Shown: positions 35,469 to 44,090 of the stretch, piece by piece
How positions within the stretch are numbered: position 1 is the first letter of the stretch
Layout: each line of letters begins with the position of its first letter
Assembly (NCBI GenBank): GCA_027485235.1
Contig: JAIXRJ010000030.1
Span: forward strand, 1 to 64,000
Source: Comamonadaceae bacterium
GTDB taxonomy: Bacteria > Pseudomonadota > Gammaproteobacteria > Burkholderiales > Burkholderiaceae_C
Reading direction: 5' to 3'
Length of the DNA stretch: 64,000 bases
Translations under genes and position numbers: made by a program
Notes under the pieces: model-generated
What the model was told of the DNA's origin: nothing
What the model saw: only the letters and a program-made list of their open reading frames with translations
Databases searched by the model: none

Positions 35469-36896
35469 ATGAACGCCCCCACCCCCGCCGCCCACCTGGC
35501 CCCCGAAATCGCGCAACGCGCTGTGCCCGAAGCCTTTTTAACGGCCCTCAAAGCCCGCTTTGGTCACAACTGCTCCACCGCACTGGTGGTGCGCGAACAG
35601 CATGGGCGGGACGAGTCGGCTTTCACCACGGTGCCGCCTCCGGCCGCGGTGGTGTTTGCCGAAAACACACAAGATGTGCAGGACGCCGTCAAGCTGTGCG
35701 CCGAGCACAAGGTGCCGGTCATTCCCTTCGGCGTGGGCTCTTCTCTGGAAGGCCATTTGCTGGCGGTGCAAGGCGGCATCAGCATCGACCTGACGCGCAT
35801 GAACAAGGTGCTGGCCATCAACGCCGAAGACCTGACGGTGACGGTGCAGCCGGGCGTGACGCGCAAGCAGCTGAACGAAGAAATCAAATCCACCGGGCTG
35901 TTTTTCCCGATCGATCCCGGCGCCGACGCCACGATTGGCGGCATGAGTGCCACACGCGCCAGCGGCACCAACGCCGTGCGCTACGGCACCATGCGCGAGA
36001 ACGTGCTGGCCATGGAGGTGGTGACCGCCCAGGGCGAAGTCATCCGCACCGGCACCCGCGCCAAAAAATCCAGCGCCGGCTACGACCTGACGCGCCTGAT
36101 GGTGGGCAGCGAAGGCACACTGGGCGTGATCACCGAAGTGACGGTGCGCCTGTACCCTTTGCCCGAAGCCATTTCGGCCGCGATTTGCTCCTTCCCGAGC
36201 ATCGAAGCCGCGGTGCGCACCGTGATCCAGACCATCCAGCTCGGCGTGCCGATTGCCCGCGTGGAGCTGATCGACCACAACACCGTGCGCATGGTCAACG
36301 CCTACGCCAAGCTGGGCCTGCGCGAAGAAGCATTGCTCTTGATGGAATTCCACGGCTCCCCTGCGGGCGTCAAAGAACAGGCCGAAACGGTGCAAGAAAT
36401 TGCCAGCGAATTCGCTGGCAACGCCTTTGAATGGGCCACCACGCCCGAAGAACGCACGCGCCTGTGGACGGCGCGGCACAACGCCTACTTTGCCGCCGTG
36501 CAAAGCCGCCCCGGCTGCCGCGCCATCAGCACCGACACCTGTGTGCCGATCAGCCGCCTGGCCGACTGCCTGCTCGACTCGATCACCGAAACCGACGCCA
36601 GCGGCCTGCCCTACTTCTTGGTCGGCCATGTGGGCGACGGCAACTTCCATTTCGGCTATTTGATCGACCCGAACAATGCACAAGAGTGTGAAACCGCCGA
36701 GGCGCTGAACCAGCAACTGGTCAGCCGCGCCTTGCGCTTAGGGGGCACCTGCACGGGCGAGCACGGCATTGGCCTGCACAAGATGGACTTCTTGCGCACC
36801 GAAACCGGCGAAGGCGCGGTGGACATGATGCGCACCATCAAGCGCGCGCTGGACCCGCACAACATCATGAACCCAGGCAAGATTTTCTCGATGTGA
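35469..36896 (+). CDS. FAD-linked 2-hydroxyacid dehydrogenase (GlcD/D-lactate dehydrogenase family)
   Basis: 475 residues. Oxidises a 2-hydroxy acid, most likely D-lactate or glycolate, passing electrons to the respiratory chain. The PCMH-type FAD domain covers about residues 45-230 (VPVIPFGVGSSLEGHLLAV, FPIDPGADATIGGMSATRASG, VGSEGTLGVITEVTVRLYP). The C-terminal FAD-oxidase domain has HVGDGNFHFGYLID and GTCTGEHGIGLHKMDFL. No GlcE or GlcF partners follow, which points to a one-subunit D-lactate dehydrogenase (cytochrome-type) rather than glycolate oxidase. GGAGA precedes the ATG. A degraded REP-like sequence may lie at 35321-35342 in the upstream gap. Confidence 0.88.
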   Translation: MNAPTPAAHLAPEIAQRAVPEAFLTALKARFGHNCSTALVVREQHGRDESAFTTVPPPAAVVFAENTQDVQDAVKLCAEHKVPVIPFGVGSSLEGHLLAVQGGISIDLTRMNKVLAINAEDLTVTVQPGVTRKQLNEEIKSTGLFFPIDPGADATIGGMSATRASGTNAVRYGTMRENVLAMEVVTAQGEVIRTGTRAKKSSAGYDLTRLMVGSEGTLGVITEVTVRLYPLPEAISAAICSFPSIEAAVRTVIQTIQLGVPIARVELIDHNTVRMVNAYAKLGLREEALLLMEFHGSPAGVKEQAETVQEIASEFAGNAFEWATTPEERTRLWTARHNAYFAAVQSRPGCRAISTDTCVPISRLADCLLDSITETDASGLPYFLVGHVGDGNFHFGYLIDPNNAQECETAEALNQQLVSRALRLGGTCTGEHGIGLHKMDFLRTETGEGAVDMMRTIKRALDPHNIMNPGKIFSM

Positions 36897-36960: not shown

Positions 36961-38703
36961 TCAAGGCAGCAGCAACTGTTCGATGCGCTGGCACAGTTGT
37001 TCAGGTTCAAACGGCTTGAGCATCACACCGCTCAGGCCAGCCGATTTGAAGCGGTCCAGGTCCAGGGGGTTGACGTTGGCGGTCAAGCCCAGCACCGGCA
37101 CTTGCTGGATGCGCTCCACCGCATCTTGGCGAATGAGCCGGGTGGCGTCGATGCCGTCCATGATCGGCATGACCATGTCCATGAAGACCAGGTCCACCCC
37201 TTGCTCTCGCAGCACATCCAGCGTCTTTTGCCCGTCTACCGCCTCCAGGACGGTGCTGTGAGGCCACGCGTTCTGCAGCACCTGTTTGAGGAGCAAGCGG
37301 TTCACCGGGTGGTCATCGGCCACCAAAAAGGTCCAAGCGCGGTCGGCACTTTGCAAGAGGTGCGGGTGCTGCTCGGCCGACTTGGCCGGGGGCGTGGCCG
37401 ACGTCAAGGGCAGTTGCAGCCAAAAGCGCGAGCCTTGACCGGGTTCACTTTCAAAACCAATTTCACCCCCGAGCAATTGGGCCAATTTCTGTGAAATGGC
37501 CAGCCCCAGACCATTCCCTCCGTACAGGGCTTGGGTGTCGTTTTCAGCTTGGGTGAAGCGTTTGAAAATCTGGTCTTGCCGCTCTTTGACGATGCCGATG
37601 CCGGTGTCGCGCACCGAAAACGCCACCCCGGGATCGGTCCAGCGCACCTGCAAAACCACCGAGCCTTGGTGCGTGAACTTGAGCGCATTGCCCAGCAAGT
37701 TCACCAGCACCTGCATCAGGCGGTGGCGGTCGGTGTGCACCCAAACGGGCAAGGCCGGGTCCAGCTCCAGGCGGTACTCCAGGTTCATGCTGGCCACGCG
37801 GGGCTTGAACAACTCGAAAGCATGTTCTGCGGTGTGGCGCAACTCAAAGGTTTCGGGCTGGATGGTCAATTGCCCCGACTGAAGTTGCGAGTAATCCAGG
37901 ATGTCGTTGATCACCGTCATCAGGTGGTCGGCCGATTGGCGTGTGTGGTTGAGCACCTTGAGGGCTTCGGGCTTGCCTTGCACCTTGGCCAGCAGCAAAG
38001 CATTGAAGCCCAAGATGGCGTTCATGGGTGTGCGCAACTCATGGCTCACGGTGGCGATGAAGTGCTCACGCAGCTTAGAGGTGTGTTCCAGTTCCTCGCG
38101 CCCGGCCTCCAGTTCGCGTTGGTGCTCACGGCTTTCTTCCAGCGCCTGGCGGTACATGCGGTCGTACATCAAGGGCACCACAATCAGCAAGCAGGTGACC
38201 AGCGTGTAAGTCATCAGCGAATTGAGCACATGCGCCATGCCCGTTTCAAAGGATTGAATCCAGCCCAGATGGTTGGAGATGGCCATGGCCAGCTGCAAGG
38301 CCATCACGACCACCAGCCAAAAAATGCCCGCCTTGCGGTGGATCACGTAAAAAGGGGTCAGGGGCAAGATCAACATCCAGGCCAAGCGAGGCGAATGAAC
38401 CCCCCCGGTGACCCAGGCTGCATAAAACAAGATCACGGCCCCCAGGCCTGTGCCCAGATGGGTCGCCCAAATCAAAGAGAAACCGTTGTTCGTCAAGACC
38501 AACAGCACCATCAGGCAGAACGCAAAACCGCTGAACATCACGTTGGCGTAAGGATAGGGGCTGAGCACGGCGTAGGCCAACAGCACCACGATCACCGCGG
38601 CCACAAAGAAGAACACGTAGGGCATCTTGCCCTGTTGAAAACGGGCGGGCAAACGGCCGGCCATGTGGGCCATTGCTGCGCGTGTCCAAGCCATGGCGCT
38701 CAC
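36961..38703 (-). CDS. Hybrid sensor histidine kinase/response regulator
   Basis: 580 residues. Residues ~28-180 hold about six hydrophobic helices with hardly any periplasmic domain, so the sensor is membrane-embedded. A short coiled coil (EESREHQRELEAGREELEH) leads to the H-box FIATVSHELRTPMNAILGF with His near 221. The ATPase boxes NLLGNALKF, DTGIGI and GGNGLGLAIS follow, then a receiver domain with phospho-Asp near 509 (VFMDMVMPIMDG) and LKP. The start is a GTG overlapping the previous kinase stop (GTGA), with an ATG three codons later as alternative. Last gene of the parAB run. Confidence 0.88.
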   Translation of the reverse strand: MSAMAWTRAAMAHMAGRLPARFQQGKMPYVFFFVAAVIVVLLAYAVLSPYPYANVMFSGFAFCLMVLLVLTNNGFSLIWATHLGTGLGAVILFYAAWVTGGVHSPRLAWMLILPLTPFYVIHRKAGIFWLVVVMALQLAMAISNHLGWIQSFETGMAHVLNSLMTYTLVTCLLIVVPLMYDRMYRQALEESREHQRELEAGREELEHTSKLREHFIATVSHELRTPMNAILGFNALLLAKVQGKPEALKVLNHTRQSADHLMTVINDILDYSQLQSGQLTIQPETFELRHTAEHAFELFKPRVASMNLEYRLELDPALPVWVHTDRHRLMQVLVNLLGNALKFTHQGSVVLQVRWTDPGVAFSVRDTGIGIVKERQDQIFKRFTQAENDTQALYGGNGLGLAISQKLAQLLGGEIGFESEPGQGSRFWLQLPLTSATPPAKSAEQHPHLLQSADRAWTFLVADDHPVNRLLLKQVLQNAWPHSTVLEAVDGQKTLDVLREQGVDLVFMDMVMPIMDGIDATRLIRQDAVERIQQVPVLGLTANVNPLDLDRFKSAGLSGVMLKPFEPEQLCQRIEQLLLP

Positions 38704-40451
38704 ACCAGACCCTTTCTCGCCAAAGCCACATGGTGACCCACCGTGCGCATCAGCGTGGCCGTGTCCATGGGTTTGTGCAGCACCTCCTTCATGCCGGCGG
38801 CCAAGCAGCGTTCGCGGTCCACCGGGTTGGTGTTGGCCGTGAGTGCCAAGATGGGCATGCGGGCCGCGATGGCAGGAAACTGCTGAAGAATTTGCCGTGT
38901 GACCTGCATGCCGTCCATGTCCGGCATGACCATGTCGATGAAGGCCACATCAAATCCTTGCTGCGTGATCAGGCTGAGTGCTTGAGCGCCACTGTCCACG
39001 GTGGTGATCTGCGCCTGGGGCCAACATTTTTGCAATTGCAACTGAGCCACCATCAGGTTGACCTTGCTGTCGTCCACCACCAGGATGCTCAGCGGCTCTT
39101 CGCTCAAGCGGTCATCGATCCAGGCGACGAACGGGTCTGTGCTCTGCGCCGCTTGCAAGGGGAGCTCTAACCAAAAACAAGCGCCGCGTCCCTCCTGACT
39201 GTCCACCCCGATCTGGCCCCCGTGCAGCAGCACCAACTTTTCGCACAGCGTTAAACCCAGGCCCGTGCCCCCAAAAGCCCGGTTGGTTTGCACATCGGCG
39301 TGTTCAAAGCGGCGGAAAATGTGCGCCTGCCGTTCATGGGGAATGCCCCGTCCGGAGTCCTGCACTTCCAACCGAATGCAATCACCTTGGGCCTTCATGC
39401 GCACCGTCACCGAACCCTCTTCGGTGAATTTGATGGCGTTGTCGACCAGTTGGTTGAGGATTTGCAGCCACCGATTGGGGTCGCCGTGCACCCGCGCAGG
39501 CAAGTCAGGGTCCCGCTCAAAATGCAAGGCCAAGCCTTTGTCGTGTGCTTTGTCACCGTGCCCTTGCTGCAACTCGTCTTGCAGGGTCTGCAGCGCAAAG
39601 TCCACCGGGTTCAAGCGCAGTTTGCCCGCCTGCAATTGCGAAAAATCCAAGATGTCGTTGACCACCTGCAGCAAATGCTCGGTTGATCGGCGGATGTGCC
39701 CGACCACCGCCAAGGTTTCGGGCTCGTCGGCCAACTCACGGTGGAGCACGCCGTTGAAGCCCAAAATCACATTCATGGGGGTGCGCAGTTCGTGGCCAAC
39801 GGCGGCCACAAATTCGTCTTTGTGTGCCTGTGCCAGGATCAGCGCTTCATGCGTGGCCTTGAGCGCATCGTTGCGCTGGTCGAGTTTGCGCAGCTGCACC
39901 TTGTGCAGGTGTTCATAAATGCGCACCCCCATCATCAGGTTCAAAAGTGCCAGCACATGGTTCAGATAAGCCCAGGTCACCACCGACGGGGACACCTCGA
40001 CGTGGCTGTCCACAAGGCCCCACCAGGTCATCGCGGTCAAGCCCAGAATGGCCAACAGCATGATGCCGATCCAGACCAAGGTGGCCGCACGCCCCAGCAT
40101 CAGCAAAACCGGCACCGACAAGACGTTGAGCCAAACCACGGCGGTGGAGTTGATGCCACCCGTGTGCATGGCCGTCAACACCACCAACAAGGCCGTCAGC
40201 GCAGTCACGGCGTGCACAAGGTGCTCAAACAGGGCCCGGATGTGCACCACGGCCAACAAGCAAACCGCCAACACCGACACCACCAAGTTGGCCTGCGCCA
40301 CCGGCTCAATGGGCGTGAACGCATAACCCAAAAAGGTGGTGCCGCACACCAGCATCAAATAGATGGTGAGCATTTCCTGACGCAAAAAACCATCGCGGCG
40401 AAACAGCCGTCGCCACCCTGCTTTGGACCCGCTTTGAACCGATGGCAACAA
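38700..40451 (-). CDS. Hybrid sensor histidine kinase/response regulator, paralogue of the next gene
   Basis: 583 residues with the same architecture as its neighbour: five to six N-terminal helices (residues ~28-175), H-box FVAAVGHELRTPMNVILGF with His near 220, ATP-binding boxes QLVDNAIKF, DSGRGIP and GGTGLGLTL, and a receiver with phospho-Asp near 506 (AFIDMVMPDMDG). The start is a TTG four bases after the parB stop with GAGG 8 bases upstream; no better start exists. The close spacing puts it in one transcript with parB. Confidence 0.87.
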   Translation of the reverse strand: MLPSVQSGSKAGWRRLFRRDGFLRQEMLTIYLMLVCGTTFLGYAFTPIEPVAQANLVVSVLAVCLLAVVHIRALFEHLVHAVTALTALLVVLTAMHTGGINSTAVVWLNVLSVPVLLMLGRAATLVWIGIMLLAILGLTAMTWWGLVDSHVEVSPSVVTWAYLNHVLALLNLMMGVRIYEHLHKVQLRKLDQRNDALKATHEALILAQAHKDEFVAAVGHELRTPMNVILGFNGVLHRELADEPETLAVVGHIRRSTEHLLQVVNDILDFSQLQAGKLRLNPVDFALQTLQDELQQGHGDKAHDKGLALHFERDPDLPARVHGDPNRWLQILNQLVDNAIKFTEEGSVTVRMKAQGDCIRLEVQDSGRGIPHERQAHIFRRFEHADVQTNRAFGGTGLGLTLCEKLVLLHGGQIGVDSQEGRGACFWLELPLQAAQSTDPFVAWIDDRLSEEPLSILVVDDSKVNLMVAQLQLQKCWPQAQITTVDSGAQALSLITQQGFDVAFIDMVMPDMDGMQVTRQILQQFPAIAARMPILALTANTNPVDRERCLAAGMKEVLHKPMDTATLMRTVGHHVALARKGLV

Positions 40452-40455
40452 GGAC

Positions 40456-41364
40456 TTAGCCTCGCAATTTGTCGATCAGCCCGTTGAGCTCCTCGAGCGA
40501 ACCAAACTGGATGCTCAACTCACCCATTTCTTCCATCTTGCCCAAACGCTTGACGCGTTTTTTGACGCGCACCTCGACCTGGGCCATCAACAGGTCTGAC
40601 AACTCTTCTTCAACTTGGCGCACGTCACGCGACTTTTCCTTTTGGGGCTTTTGTGCGACCAAGTTGAACTCGGCACCGAGTTTTTTGGCCAGACTTTCCG
40701 CCTCACGCACCGACAGTTTTTTGCCCGCAATCTGATGGGCAGCCGTGATTTGGGCCGCTTTGTCCAAGGGCAAGAGGGCGCGGGCGTGGCCCATGTCCAG
40801 ATCGCCCGCCATCAGCATGGTTTGCACCGGTTCGGCCAGGTTGAGCAAACGCAGCAAGTTGCTGGCGGCACTGCGCGAGCGGCCAACCGCTTGCGCAGCT
40901 GTTTCGTGAGTGAGCCCAAACTCTTTGATCAAGCGTTGCAGGCCCTGGGCTTCTTCCAGCGGGTTCAGGTCTTCACGCTGGATGTTTTCGATCAGGGCCA
41001 TGGCCGCAGCGGCTTCGTTCGGCACATCGCGCACCAAGACAGGGACCGTCTCCAGGCCCGCCAGGCGTGAGGCGCGAAAGCGGCGCTCGCCAGCGATGAT
41101 TTCGTACTTGCCGGCGTTGGGGCCATCGGTGAGCTGGCGCACCAGAATCGGCTGCATGATGCCCTGCGCCTTGATCGACTCGGCCAGTTCGTACAAGGCA
41201 CCTTCGTCCATGCGGGTGCGGGGTTGGTACATGCCGGCCACCATCTGCTCGAGCTTGAGTTGGCTGGGCTGCCCGCTGTTGGCCACAACCGGTGCATCTT
41301 CCACTTTGGGGCCCAGCAGGGCCTCCAGCCCGCGGCCCAATCCTTTGGGTTTTTTGGTGACCAT
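40456..41364 (-). CDS. parB: Chromosome partitioning protein ParB
   Basis: 302-residue CTP-dependent clamp that loads at parS and recruits ParA and condensin. MVTKKPKGLGRGLEALLG at the start is typical of chromosomal ParB. The nuclease-like CTPase part holds GKYEIIAGERRFRASRLAGL and ENIQREDLNPLEEAQG, followed by the helix-turn-helix GLTHETAAQAVGRSRSAASNLLRLL (about residues 140-165) and a C-terminal dimerisation segment. AAGGA lies 6 bases before the chosen ATG. It is 2 bases from the upstream hydrolase stop and 4 bases from the downstream kinase start. Confidence 0.95.
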   Translation of the reverse strand: MVTKKPKGLGRGLEALLGPKVEDAPVVANSGQPSQLKLEQMVAGMYQPRTRMDEGALYELAESIKAQGIMQPILVRQLTDGPNAGKYEIIAGERRFRASRLAGLETVPVLVRDVPNEAAAAMALIENIQREDLNPLEEAQGLQRLIKEFGLTHETAAQAVGRSRSAASNLLRLLNLAEPVQTMLMAGDLDMGHARALLPLDKAAQITAAHQIAGKKLSVREAESLAKKLGAEFNLVAQKPQKEKSRDVRQVEEELSDLLMAQVEVRVKKRVKRLGKMEEMGELSIQFGSLEELNGLIDKLRG

Positions 41365-41366
41365 GG

Positions 41367-41951
41367 TCATTCCTTCATGAGGGTTTGCAAAAGCGCGTGG
41401 CCTTGCGGCCAAGCGCCTAAAGATGAATCGGCGTTGATGTGGCCAGCCCGTCCCAAGTCCAGCCATTGGGCGCCCCAATCTTGAGCCAGGGCTTGGGCGC
41501 GGTCTGCGCGGCAATAGGGGTCATTTTGGCTGCCCACCAAAATGCTTTTGAAAGGCAAAGGCCGGCGCACAATGGGCGTCCAACCGGAAAAGCGGTCTCG
41601 CATCTCTGGCGCCTCCACGTCACCGGGCGCCACCAGCAAGGCACCGTGCACACGGTTGGTGTGGCGTGAAAACGAAGCCCAAGCCGCCGCCAAAATACAG
41701 CCCAAACTGTGGGCCACCAACACCACTGGACTTGGTGCATCGATGACCACCTCGTCCAACCGGGCCAGCCAGTCACCGCGCAGGGGATGCAGCCAGTCGT
41801 TTTGCTCGACCACGGTGTGCCCATACAAACGTGCCCAGTGCATTTGCCAATGGTCGGGGCCGCTGCCTTGCCAGCCGGGCAAGGTCAACACGCTGACTGG
41901 GACCCTTTTCGAGCTTGGGCCTGAGCCTGTGTCATCGGTCAAATCGGTCAT
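41367..41951 (-). CDS. RBBP9/YdeN-family alpha/beta hydrolase
   Basis: 194 residues, probable serine hydrolase of unknown substrate. TLPGWQGSGPDHWQMHW at the start and the nucleophile elbow VLVAHSLGCILAAAW (Ser near residue 85) are diagnostic of this family; a late Asp in DPYCRAD and the His of AGHINADSSLG complete a plausible triad. The ATG at 41951 is preferred to a TTG farther up. It sits between parA and parB with gaps of 20 and 2 bases, an insertion in an otherwise standard pair. Confidence 0.82.
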   Translation of the reverse strand: MTDLTDDTGSGPSSKRVPVSVLTLPGWQGSGPDHWQMHWARLYGHTVVEQNDWLHPLRGDWLARLDEVVIDAPSPVVLVAHSLGCILAAAWASFSRHTNRVHGALLVAPGDVEAPEMRDRFSGWTPIVRRPLPFKSILVGSQNDPYCRADRAQALAQDWGAQWLDLGRAGHINADSSLGAWPQGHALLQTLMKE

Positions 41952-41971
41952 GGCGCGAAGGGTCTCTCGGC

Positions 41972-42742
41972 TCAAAGCGTGGGCGCACGCTTGACCATTT
42001 CGCGGGCAAACTCCACGTAGGCTTGGCTGCCCTTGGCCGACGGGTCAAACACCACGCCAGGCAAACCGTAACTGGGGGCCTCGGCCAAGCGCACGTTGCG
42101 CGGGATCACGGCGTCAAACACTTTGTCGCCAAAGTGCGCCTTGAGTTGGTCACTGACCTGCAGCTGCAATGTGATGCGTGGGTCGAACATGACCCGCAAC
42201 AGGCCGATGAGTTTCAAATCCTTGTTCAAGTTGGCATGCACCTGTTTGATGGTGTTGACCAGATCTGTCAAACCCTCCAAGGCAAAGTACTCACACTGCA
42301 TGGGCACGATCACCCCATGGGCCGCACACAAGCCATTGAGGGTGAGCATGGACAAGGACGGCGGGCAATCGATGAGCACAAAATCGTAATCTCCGTCCAC
42401 AGCGGCCAAGGCGGTTTTCAGCCGCTGGTCCCGGTGCGCCAATTGCACCAATTCCACCTCCGCACCGGCCAGCTCACGGTTGGCACTGAGCACGTTGTAA
42501 CCACACTTGTCGGCCAGAACAACCGCTTCGGTCACCGATGCCGACTCCAGCAGCACGTCGTAAACGCTCAATTCCAAGTGCCTCTTGTCAATGCCCGAAC
42601 CCATGGTGGCATTGCCTTGGGGGTCCAAATCAACCAACAACACGCGCTGACCGACTTTGGCCAGGCCTGCGGCCAGGTTGACGGTGGTGGTGGTTTTGCC
42701 TACGCCACCTTTTTGGTTGGCAATGCAGAAGATCTTGGCCAT
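41972..42742 (-). CDS. parA: Chromosome partitioning ATPase ParA
   Basis: 256 residues. The deviant Walker A motif KGGVGKTTTTVNLAAGLA is at about residues 10-27, the switch region DLDPQGNATMGSG near 40-52, and DFVLIDCPPSLSMLTLNGL near 120-138. ParA drives movement of ParB-parS complexes over the nucleoid by ATP-dependent DNA binding. It is near parS sites in rsmG and mnmG. Preceded 14 bases upstream by a LysE-type exporter gene. Confidence 0.95.
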   Translation of the reverse strand: MAKIFCIANQKGGVGKTTTTVNLAAGLAKVGQRVLLVDLDPQGNATMGSGIDKRHLELSVYDVLLESASVTEAVVLADKCGYNVLSANRELAGAEVELVQLAHRDQRLKTALAAVDGDYDFVLIDCPPSLSMLTLNGLCAAHGVIVPMQCEYFALEGLTDLVNTIKQVHANLNKDLKLIGLLRVMFDPRITLQLQVSDQLKAHFGDKVFDAVIPRNVRLAEAPSYGLPGVVFDPSAKGSQAYVEFAREMVKRAPTL

Positions 42743-42756
42743 GTTCGTACCCTGAT

Positions 42757-43374
42757 TTATTTAGAAACGGCCAGCTTGATGCCAAAGCCAATGAGAAAAA
42801 CACCCGCCAATTTTTCAAGCACACGACCGACGCGGGGGTTGGCACGCATGCGCTTTGCCAAGTGGTGCGTCAGCAAGGTCATGCCCAAGCCATACAAAAA
42901 AGTCAAACCCGCAATGGTCGCCGCCATGGTGCCAAAGCTGATCAAGCCCAAGTGGGTTTGAGGGTCCACGAACAAGGGGAAAAAGGCCATGTAAAAGACG
43001 ATCGCCTTGGGGTTGAGCAAGGTGATGGCCAAGGCCTGCTGGAAATACTGCCGGGGCCGGATGTTCAAGACGGGCGCGTCACCCGGTTTGGCCGACAGCA
43101 TCTTCCAGCCCAACCAGGCCAGGTAGATCGCCCCCATCCATTGGATGGCCACAAACGCCGCCGGATGGGTGGCCAGCACCGCCGCCACACCTGCCACCGC
43201 CAGCCACATGAGCACCTGGTCGCCGGCGATCACGCCCAAAGTGGCCATGAGACCCCCGGCCACGCCGCCCTTGCTGGTGGAGGTGATGAGGGCCAGATTA
43301 CCCGGGCCGGGAATGGCCAAAAACACCACAATGGCCACCACAAACGCGCCGTAATCCGATATGCCAAAGAACAT
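42757..43374 (-). CDS. LysE/RhtB-family exporter
   Basis: 205-residue inner-membrane protein, six hydrophobic segments, likely exporting an amino acid. It has the family start FGISDYGAFVVAIVVFLAIPGPGNLALI and the internal ITLLNPKAIVFYMAFFPLFVD. It is clearly a tandem duplicate of the gene at 43414-44028, with the same block order and similar ends (FLIGFGIKLAVSK against LLGFGFRMVLAK). Confidence 0.87.
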   Translation of the reverse strand: MFFGISDYGAFVVAIVVFLAIPGPGNLALITSTSKGGVAGGLMATLGVIAGDQVLMWLAVAGVAAVLATHPAAFVAIQWMGAIYLAWLGWKMLSAKPGDAPVLNIRPRQYFQQALAITLLNPKAIVFYMAFFPLFVDPQTHLGLISFGTMAATIAGLTFLYGLGMTLLTHHLAKRMRANPRVGRVLEKLAGVFLIGFGIKLAVSK

Positions 43375-43413
43375 GTGAAGCTTTCCGAAAAATGAGAAGG
43401 TCTGGTGTGCCGC

Positions 43414-44028
43414 TTATTTGGCCAGCACCATCCTGAAGCCAAAACCGAGCAAGCACAAACCGGCCAACTTTTGCAGCCCAGACGACAGTTTGGGATGGGC
43501 GCGGATGCGTTCGGCCATGTTGTGGGTGACCCAAACCACACCGAAACAATACACAAAACCCAATACCGCAATCGTCAAAGCCATCACCACAAAAGTCACC
43601 CACCCTTGGTGATGGACCGGATCAATGAACTGTGGAAAAAACGCCAGATAGAACATGATGGCTTTGGGGTTGAGCAAGGTGATCAACATTGTTTCCCGAA
43701 AATAATGCCCCGGCGTGATTTGCAAACCCAGCCCCTTACCCTGTTTGGACAAGAGCATCTTGCCGCCCAACCACACCAGGTAGGCTGCGCCCGCCCATTG
43801 AAGCCCGATGAACAAGGGTGGATAGGTTTTGAGCAAAGTCGCCACACCAGCGACCGTGAGCCACAACAAAATCTGGTCGCCCAACAACAGCCCCAGCACA
43901 GAAGCCATGCCGCCTGCCCATCCTCCTTTGCTGGCCGAACTGATCAAGGCCAAATTACCCGGCCCAGGCAAAAACAAAAGCAACACAAAGGCCGCAGCAA
44001 AAGCACCGTAATCCGAGATACCAAACAT
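43414..44028 (-). CDS. LysE/RhtB-family exporter, tandem paralogue
   Basis: 204 residues, six hydrophobic helices. MFGISDYGAFAAAFVLLLFLPGPGNLALIS at the start and ITLLNPKAIMFYLAFFPQF in the middle define the family. The ATG at 44028 is used because it starts exactly like its paralogue; a GTG two codons earlier is possible. A perfect parS site lies in the 87-base gap between its start and rsmG. Substrate unknown. Confidence 0.87.
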   Translation of the reverse strand: MFGISDYGAFAAAFVLLLFLPGPGNLALISSASKGGWAGGMASVLGLLLGDQILLWLTVAGVATLLKTYPPLFIGLQWAGAAYLVWLGGKMLLSKQGKGLGLQITPGHYFRETMLITLLNPKAIMFYLAFFPQFIDPVHHQGWVTFVVMALTIAVLGFVYCFGVVWVTHNMAERIRAHPKLSSGLQKLAGLCLLGFGFRMVLAK

Positions 44029-44090
44029 GTGCACGCTTTCAGGGGAATGTCCGAGTGTAAGTGATGGCCACTTGAGCGTCTGCCCTGCGG

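What the first reader, a model, noticed from the sequence alone, without database searches (positions are those of the whole stretch)
36961..42742. Two hybrid histidine kinases packed onto the chromosomal parA-parB genes
parA, a small hydrolase, parB and two paralogous membrane-embedded hybrid kinases follow with gaps of 20, 2, 4 and -4 bases, which predicts one transcript with coupled translation. Neither kinase has a partner regulator with an output domain nearby. Chromosome partition genes co-expressed with sensor kinases would tie segregation or ParB level to an envelope or metabolic signal. I know of no described system of this form.
Basis: partly seen in the sequence, partly recalled or inferred. 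Interest (0 to 1): 0.68.

Follow-up and report, generated by a model that had tools for sequence, protein, structure and literature searches.

The report
Paired membrane receptor kinases behind parB
In Limnohabitans, common freshwater bacteria, two co-translated sensor kinases sit right behind the chromosome-partition gene parB; their membrane sensors look like those of adenylyl cyclases and the quorum-sensing kinase CqsS, and the evidence suggests a portable signalling pair parked there rather than a control on chromosome segregation.

Summary
In detail: parA, a small hydrolase, parB and two hybrid kinases run head to tail, with no promoter-like site inside. The linkage is conserved: by match ends kinase 1 follows parB in 35 of 60 genomes of the genus and in the 3 positive genomes of a second genus; no other genus sampled had it at the cut-off used. 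Named relatives are mostly Limnohabitans and Comamonadaceae MAGs. The kinases overlap by 4 bases in 61 of 81 measured cases and duplicate as a pair. Both carry a six-helix membrane sensor predicted to fold like membrane adenylyl cyclases (VIA-align Z 16.9 and 15.8), the design published for the quorum-sensing kinase CqsS. One Hpt was found in the genome; in one relative the pair lies beside its 48%-identical counterpart. The segregation reading is weak: pairs also sit behind other genes, and two near neighbours lack kinases behind parB, one keeping a fused remnant. I read it as a portable CqsS-like receptor pair feeding a shared phosphorelay; signal and response regulator are unknown.

The parts
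41972..42742 (-). parA, chromosomal partition ATPase
   Evidence: Pfam AAA_31 E 8.9e-64
41367..41951 (-). small serine hydrolase (PF06821); a start at 41975 would overlap parA
   Evidence: Pfam Ser_hydrolase E 4.5e-59
40456..41364 (-). parB (alternative start at 41370)
   Evidence: ParB_N, HTH_ParB, ParB_C; the better of two ParB_N matches in the genome
38700..40451 (-). kinase 1 (HK1), 583 aa: six-TM sensor, HisKA, HATPase, receiver
39837..40394 (-). HK1 six-TM sensor domain (residues 20-205), adenylyl-cyclase-type fold predicted
   Evidence: AF2 pLDDT 81.8; VIA-align Z 16.9 to 7yzk_A
40146..40160 (-). conserved GGINS turn between TM3 and TM4 of HK1 (residues 98-102)
   Evidence: Gly98 and Ser102 invariant in 71 rows
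39624..39821 (-). HK1 HisKA
   Evidence: Pfam residues 211-276
39153..39485 (-). HK1 HATPase_c
   Evidence: Pfam residues 323-433
38742..39086 (-). HK1 receiver domain
   Evidence: Pfam
38700..38703 (-). GTGA overlap joining HK1 stop and HK2 start
   Evidence: -4 overlap in 61 of 81 cases
36961..38703 (-). kinase 2 (HK2), 580 aa: six-TM sensor, HisKA, HATPase, receiver
38089..38646 (-). HK2 six-TM sensor domain (residues 20-205), same fold predicted
   Evidence: AF2 pLDDT 88.7; VIA-align Z 15.8 to 7yzk_A
38392..38406 (-). conserved GGxxS turn between TM3 and TM4 of HK2 (residues 100-104)
   Evidence: both Gly and the Ser nearly invariant in 71 rows
37873..38070 (-). HK2 HisKA
   Evidence: Pfam residues 212-277
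37402..37731 (-). HK2 HATPase_c
   Evidence: Pfam residues 325-434
36979..37326 (-). HK2 receiver domain
   Evidence: Pfam
35469..36896 (+). convergent FAD-linked oxidase that bounds the unit
   Evidence: Pfam; found within the locus in 51 of 76 relatives, counted by eye

Best explanation
HK1 and HK2 are a co-translated pair of six-TM receptor hybrid kinases, built like the quorum-sensing kinase CqsS. A small, probably lipophilic ligand is read inside the membrane bundle around the GGxxS turn (inferred). The signal passes down the sixth helix to set autophosphorylation of the HisKA histidine, then to the attached receiver, then to the one Hpt protein found in the genome, which relays it to a response regulator encoded elsewhere (inferred from architecture). 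HK1 and HK2 work together, as two inputs to one Hpt or as a heterodimer (inferred from pairing). The place behind parB gives steady origin-proximal expression and a stable site for cassette exchange or loss; it does not control segregation (inferred). Shown here: gene order, conserved spacing, catalytic residues, purifying selection, predicted fold, one Hpt match.
For: Linkage and spacing. Pair moves as a unit: HK1 and HK2 form separate clades, and the second pair of the four-kinase loci groups with the second genus in both. Phospho-accepting His in all 64 kinases; His, Asn, receiver Asp, Thr and Lys invariant in the 17 HK1 and 17 HK2 rows aligned. Fold: for both sensors the top 12 (HK1) and top 8 (HK2) VIA-align rows are membrane adenylyl cyclases, the next is ImcA (a diguanylate cyclase, recalled), and the first unrelated rows drop to Z 8.1 and 6.0. 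CqsS has the same six-TM design, its sensor regulates the cyclase Rv1625c in chimeras, and it signals through LuxU (an Hpt) to LuxO (passages of PMC4821796; PMC3310172). One Hpt match in the genome, found in 57 of 60 genus genomes; the pair abuts a 48%-identical Hpt in L185. dN/dS 0.108-0.205.
Against: No ligand, synthase or response regulator was identified; a model that I recall as CqsA/LqsA synthase matched in 0 of 60 genomes. Foldseek E-values are modest (4.2e-3 and 2.7e-2, none under 0.001), a sequence profile of the HK1 sensor finds no cyclase in the PDB, and the human cyclases score Z 10.3-12.9 against HK2, under the tool's caution level of about 13 for helical bundles. Fold does not show function. 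The Hpt also occurs in genomes without the pair at parB, so it serves other kinases, and 30 Hpt loci of about 3 kb in the genus show no kinase. The Hpt neighbour in L185 is one MAG and convergent, not an operon.
Confidence: 0.6

Rival explanations
1. The kinases are functionally tied to chromosome partition: an envelope or metabolic signal sets ParB level or activity through the shared transcript.
For: Tight spacing conserved across two genera; parB is the commonest upstream neighbour among the 76 loci, though the query was built from parB-linked kinases; one isolate carries a second, 99.7% identical parB before a second kinase pair.
Against: Pairs lie behind other genes; five of seven genomes hold several pairs; no kinase 1 listed behind parB in 23 of 60 genus genomes.
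Confidence: 0.1
2. The output partner is the LuxR-type regulator that follows the kinases in some relatives; together they form a local signalling unit that the window's genome has reduced.
For: LuxR-type gene downstream of kinase 2 in 17 of 76 fetched relatives, the closest one (L121) included.
Against: The two copies scanned have no receiver domain; no copy in the window or in the other 59 loci, some of them cut short; retained in G027, whose kinases are gone.
Confidence: 0.12
3. The sensors read redox or quinone state like RegB/PrrB, whose GGxxNPF turn (recalled) lies in a similar place.
For: Conserved GGxxS turn between TM3 and TM4 beside GGxxNP in 11 RegB-like sequences.
Against: Profile comparison with these sensors is at the level of shuffled controls; the 11 sequences themselves score under the RegB family cut-off, so the test is not final.
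Confidence: 0.1
4. Plain hitchhiking: a duplicated kinase pair with no relation between its two members or with its neighbours.
For: Varied neighbours.
Against: The -4 overlap and joint duplication of HK1 with HK2.
Confidence: 0.08

Closest known systems
CqsS (Vibrio) and LqsS (Legionella) six-TM sensor kinases
   Same: Six-TM sensor without large loops; CqsS also has kinase core, attached receiver and relay through a free Hpt (passages of PMC4821796, PMC3310172; section 11 of PMC3376566)
   Different: Two paralogues in tandem; no synthase gene found beside them; placed behind parB; ligand unknown
Membrane domain of class III adenylyl cyclases (Rv1625c/Cya, human AC5, AC8, AC9)
   Same: Predicted fold of both sensors; fatty acids act on Rv1625c through this domain (abstract of PMC12505454)
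   Different: Effector is a histidine kinase; 11-12% sequence identity to Rv1625c
RegB/PrrB redox kinases
   Same: GG turn in the membrane domain of RegB-like sequences
   Different: No detectable profile similarity
MASE6 (PF20966)
   Same: Weak full-length similarity of the HK1 sensor (best E 0.0075 among relatives)
   Different: The window's HK1 is below the curated cut-off; 5 of 17 HK1 and 2 of 17 HK2 rows match at E 1

Membership tests
CqsS/LqsS quorum-sensing kinases | six-TM sensor, HisKA, HATPase, attached receiver (the last in CqsS) | tested here: met
CqsS/LqsS quorum-sensing kinases | autoinducer synthase gene (CqsA/LqsA type) with the kinase | tested here: inconclusive
   None seen in the ORF lists, not every ORF being scanned; NF005526, recalled as this family, 0 of 60 genomes at E 1e-60, but its controls included no known producer
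CqsS/LqsS quorum-sensing kinases | phosphotransfer to a free Hpt protein | not testable with these tools
   One free Hpt match in the genome is consistent; transfer needs an assay
CqsS/LqsS quorum-sensing kinases | ligand residues (W104, S107, F160/F162/F166, C170 of V. cholerae CqsS) | not tested
   No CqsS sequence was fetched; residues named in PMC3376566
Adenylyl-cyclase-type six-TM receptor domain | fold of the membrane domain | tested here: met
   Predicted models: VIA-align Z 16.9, rmsd 3.0, 179 of 186 residues; Z 15.8, rmsd 3.1, 178 of 186
RegB/PrrB kinases | sequence-profile similarity of the membrane domain | tested here: inconclusive
   Scores at the level of shuffled controls, but the comparison set is under the RegB cut-off
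MASE6 | score above the curated cut-off | tested here: not met
   HK1 sensor of the window 15.0 bits against 27.4
Chromosomal parABS locus | ParA ATPase and ParB with N-terminal, HTH and C-terminal domains | tested here: met

The most novel reading that the evidence does not exclude
HK1 and HK2 form an obligate heteromer that puts two different six-TM receptor domains side by side, a bacterial kinase counterpart of the TM1/TM2 pair of mammalian adenylyl cyclases, and the pairs are strain-specific receptor alleles swapped as cassettes at parB for a lipid-like cell-to-cell signal.
Probability: 0.15. Interest if true: 0.75.

Novelty: new variant of a known kind. Interest (0 to 1): 0.5.

Why it matters
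The ligands of adenylyl-cyclase-type membrane domains are a long-standing open question; a conserved bacterial kinase pair with this predicted fold and a readable phosphorelay would give an assay for such ligands. It also warns that operon membership with parB need not mean a role in segregation.

Tried and rejected
RegB-like quinone sensor: profile comparison negative, real local scores (18.4 and 17.7) below the best of 20 column shuffles (21.7 and 23.6); HK1 against HK2 as positive control gave 99.7%. A first extraction script found no rows because its H-box pattern was too strict. MASE6: weak; the family rang nowhere, in 80 genomes or in the controls, so its absence is not shown. Plasmid carriage of HK1: no match at 1e-70 in 72,556 plasmid records. 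Recent horizontal transfer by fourfold sites, in 45 loci (window and 44 of 76) with all six genes: 0 of 984 pairs with flank divergence over 0.25 had kinase divergence under 0.6 of the flanks; control 0 of 979. So the tree conflict (AU p at most 4.9e-6 on a quick tree, for three clades of the flank-gene tree, picked after I had seen the first kinase tree) may be old exchange or differential loss of paralogous pairs. Order-level search in 300 genomes: outside the family the listed matches begin at query residue 140 or later, so only the kinase core matched; four candidates were scored per genome. Literature: no paper held Limnohabitans with parB and histidine kinase, nor hybrid histidine kinase with parAB, operon and chromosome segregation; MASE6 with histidine kinase gave none and MASE6 alone one unrelated paper; no listed title or 93 describes the arrangement. 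The library lacks most subscription journals.

Full report
OBSERVATION. On the minus strand the window reads mnmG, rsmG, two LysE-type genes, parA, a small serine hydrolase, parB, HK1, HK2, and then a convergent FAD-linked oxidase (Pfam for all but mnmG and one LysE-type gene). The stated gaps are correct. HK1 and HK2 are paralogues, 33% identical over 562 columns, both with HisKA, HATPase and receiver domains. No promoter-like site lies in the unit and terminator-like sites are at chance.

CONSERVATION. In 60 genomes of the genus I compared the places of HK1 and ParB by eye: HK1 lies behind parB on the same strand, within 300 bases by match ends, in 35; in 2 (G016, G057) HK1 is present but parB is not on the same contig; in 23 no HK1 match is listed behind parB, among them G058 and G059, where no ParB was found. 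The match list was cut; 13 of the 23 were read and none has the pair. In 299 genomes of the family (141 genera) 8 had a match at E 1e-80: 4 of the window's genus (the window's own genome included), 3 of one other genus, all three behind parB, and 1 of a third genus, not at parB. A scan of named genomes gave 76 loci, mostly Limnohabitans isolates and Comamonadaceae MAGs. By match ends parB lies within 300 bases of HK1 in 59; in 5 it is further, of which L171, L181 and L192 at 323-405, L133 holds a second parB, and L176 has other genes between; in 12 no parB is in the locus, 5 of these being cut off just upstream. Measured stop to start, 60 of 63 parB-HK1 junctions are -20 to 36 bases (the others 107, 127 and 343), and the HK1-HK2 junction is -4 in 61 of 81 cases. 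Starts were chosen by rule, cut at -20, so the lowest gaps are not exact.

THE PAIR IS A UNIT. In a tree of 64 kinases HK1 and HK2 form two clades (the outgroup row from G273 is a long branch of unsure place). The second pair of the four-kinase loci groups with the second genus in both clades; in G011 HK2 alone was doubled. The phospho-accepting His is present in all 64 (whose other motif lists show only the eight commonest forms). In the 17 HK1 and 17 HK2 rows aligned in full the key residues of kinase core and receiver are invariant; one locus (L042) has an altered G2 box in HK1. Kinase dN/dS is 0.108-0.205 over five relatives.

NOT BOUND TO PARTITION. L184 and L173 carry the pair behind an rbgA-like GTPase, L191 behind an aconitase-like gene, and L187, L188 and L190 at other places; these gene names are from my reading of the protein starts, not from a family search. 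Of the seven genomes behind such loci five hold further pairs, that of L190 further single copies, and that of L185 one pair only, at E 1e-60. A tree of ParA, ParB, GlcD and GidB from 40 rows (L067 left out, window added) needs at least five changes of kinase presence; G023 and G027, without kinases, nest beside the window. In G027 a 114-residue ORF joins the start of an HK1-like sensor to the end of an HK2-like receiver, a remnant of a deletion (the HK1 half judged by eye). In the isolate Limnohabitans sp. 2KL-1 (L133) the order is parB-HK1-HK2-parB-HK1-HK2, the two parB copies being 99.7% identical in DNA, which suggests arrival of a second cassette by recombination at parB. Kinase and flank trees conflict, but fourfold sites show no recent transfer.

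SENSOR. Profiles of the two membrane domains (70 of 79 and 70 of 81 available locus stretches plus the window) share a GGxxS turn between TM3 and TM4. AlphaFold2 gives six long helices for both, with a broken TM4 and a long sixth helix (pLDDT 81.8 and 88.7). Foldseek ranks the adenylyl cyclase Rv1625c/Cya first for both at modest E-values of 4.2e-3 and 2.7e-2. VIA-align gives it Z 16.9 (rmsd 3.0, 179 residues) and Z 15.8 (rmsd 3.1, 178 residues), followed by human AC5, AC8 and AC9 and by ImcA, then unrelated rows at 8.1 and 6.0. The Rv1625c scores exceed the tool's caution level of about 13 for helical bundles; the other cyclase rows are at 12.1-14.8 for HK1 and 10.3-12.9 for HK2. A sequence profile of the HK1 sensor finds no cyclase. 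Papers: passages of PMC4821796 say that the six-TM sensor of CqsS is of identical design to the Rv1625c anchor and regulates it in chimeras, and that CqsS-like sensors occur in beta-proteobacteria; passages of PMC9433096 treat the Cya membrane domain as a putative receptor; the abstract of PMC12505454 reports inhibition of Rv1625c by C18 mono-unsaturated fatty acids through this domain; passages of PMC3310172 give CqsS to LuxU to LuxO and the convergence of hybrid kinases on LuxU; section 11 and passages of PMC3376566 describe six-TM CqsS/LqsS and homologues in Ralstonia, Burkholderia and Polaromonas; passages of PMC3285556 were seen too.

RELAY. The genome has one Hpt match at E 0.001, a free small protein, and three proteins with both kinase core and receiver among the receiver loci read: HK1, HK2 and a 665-residue one. 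Several response regulators have no kinase next to them by a home-made profile (L111, L114, L115, L116, L117), so an Hpt hub is plausible. In L185 the pair is convergent with, and by longest ORFs overlaps, a 116-residue Hpt that is 48% identical to the window genome's Hpt, followed by genes that I read by eye as fliS, fliA, flhG and flhF. The Hpt is in 57 of 60 genus genomes, also without the pair.

VERDICT. A conserved, co-translated pair of CqsS-like six-TM hybrid kinases that uses the place behind parB. It works like CqsS in design; it is not filed as CqsS because no synthase was found and no ligand residue was tested. Link to segregation: possible, not supported.

Noticed in passing
L133:7000-16088: Limnohabitans sp. 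2KL-1 carries parB twice (99.7% identical DNA), each before a different kinase pair.
   Followed up: partly
L052:8962-9306: Remnant ORF joining the start of an HK1-like sensor to the end of an HK2-like receiver behind parB.
   Followed up: partly
L121:11597-12334 and 16 other loci: A LuxR-type gene, 79-96% identical to the L052 copy, downstream of the kinases; a Tat amidase and a BenE-type transporter sit nearby in some loci.
   Followed up: partly
L185:5233-11466: Kinase pair beside an Hpt gene and flagellar-type genes (by eye) in a MAG labelled Hydrogenophaga intermedia.
   Followed up: partly
L173 and L184 genomes (G653, G647): Four kinase pairs in each genome, a lineage-specific expansion.
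   Followed up: no
L176:2987-7698: Several genes, by eye a tricarboxylate receptor and a Rieske-type dioxygenase, lie between parB and HK1; L062 has similar genes behind parB without kinases.
   Followed up: no
L155:3801-4713: parB matches in three pieces, a broken gene or assembly error.
   Followed up: no
L126: Record titled Akkermansia muciniphila MAG carries a typical Limnohabitans locus; probably mislabelled.
   Followed up: no
window 42757-44034: Two LysE-type transporter genes in tandem between rsmG and parA; relatives have one or both.
   Followed up: no
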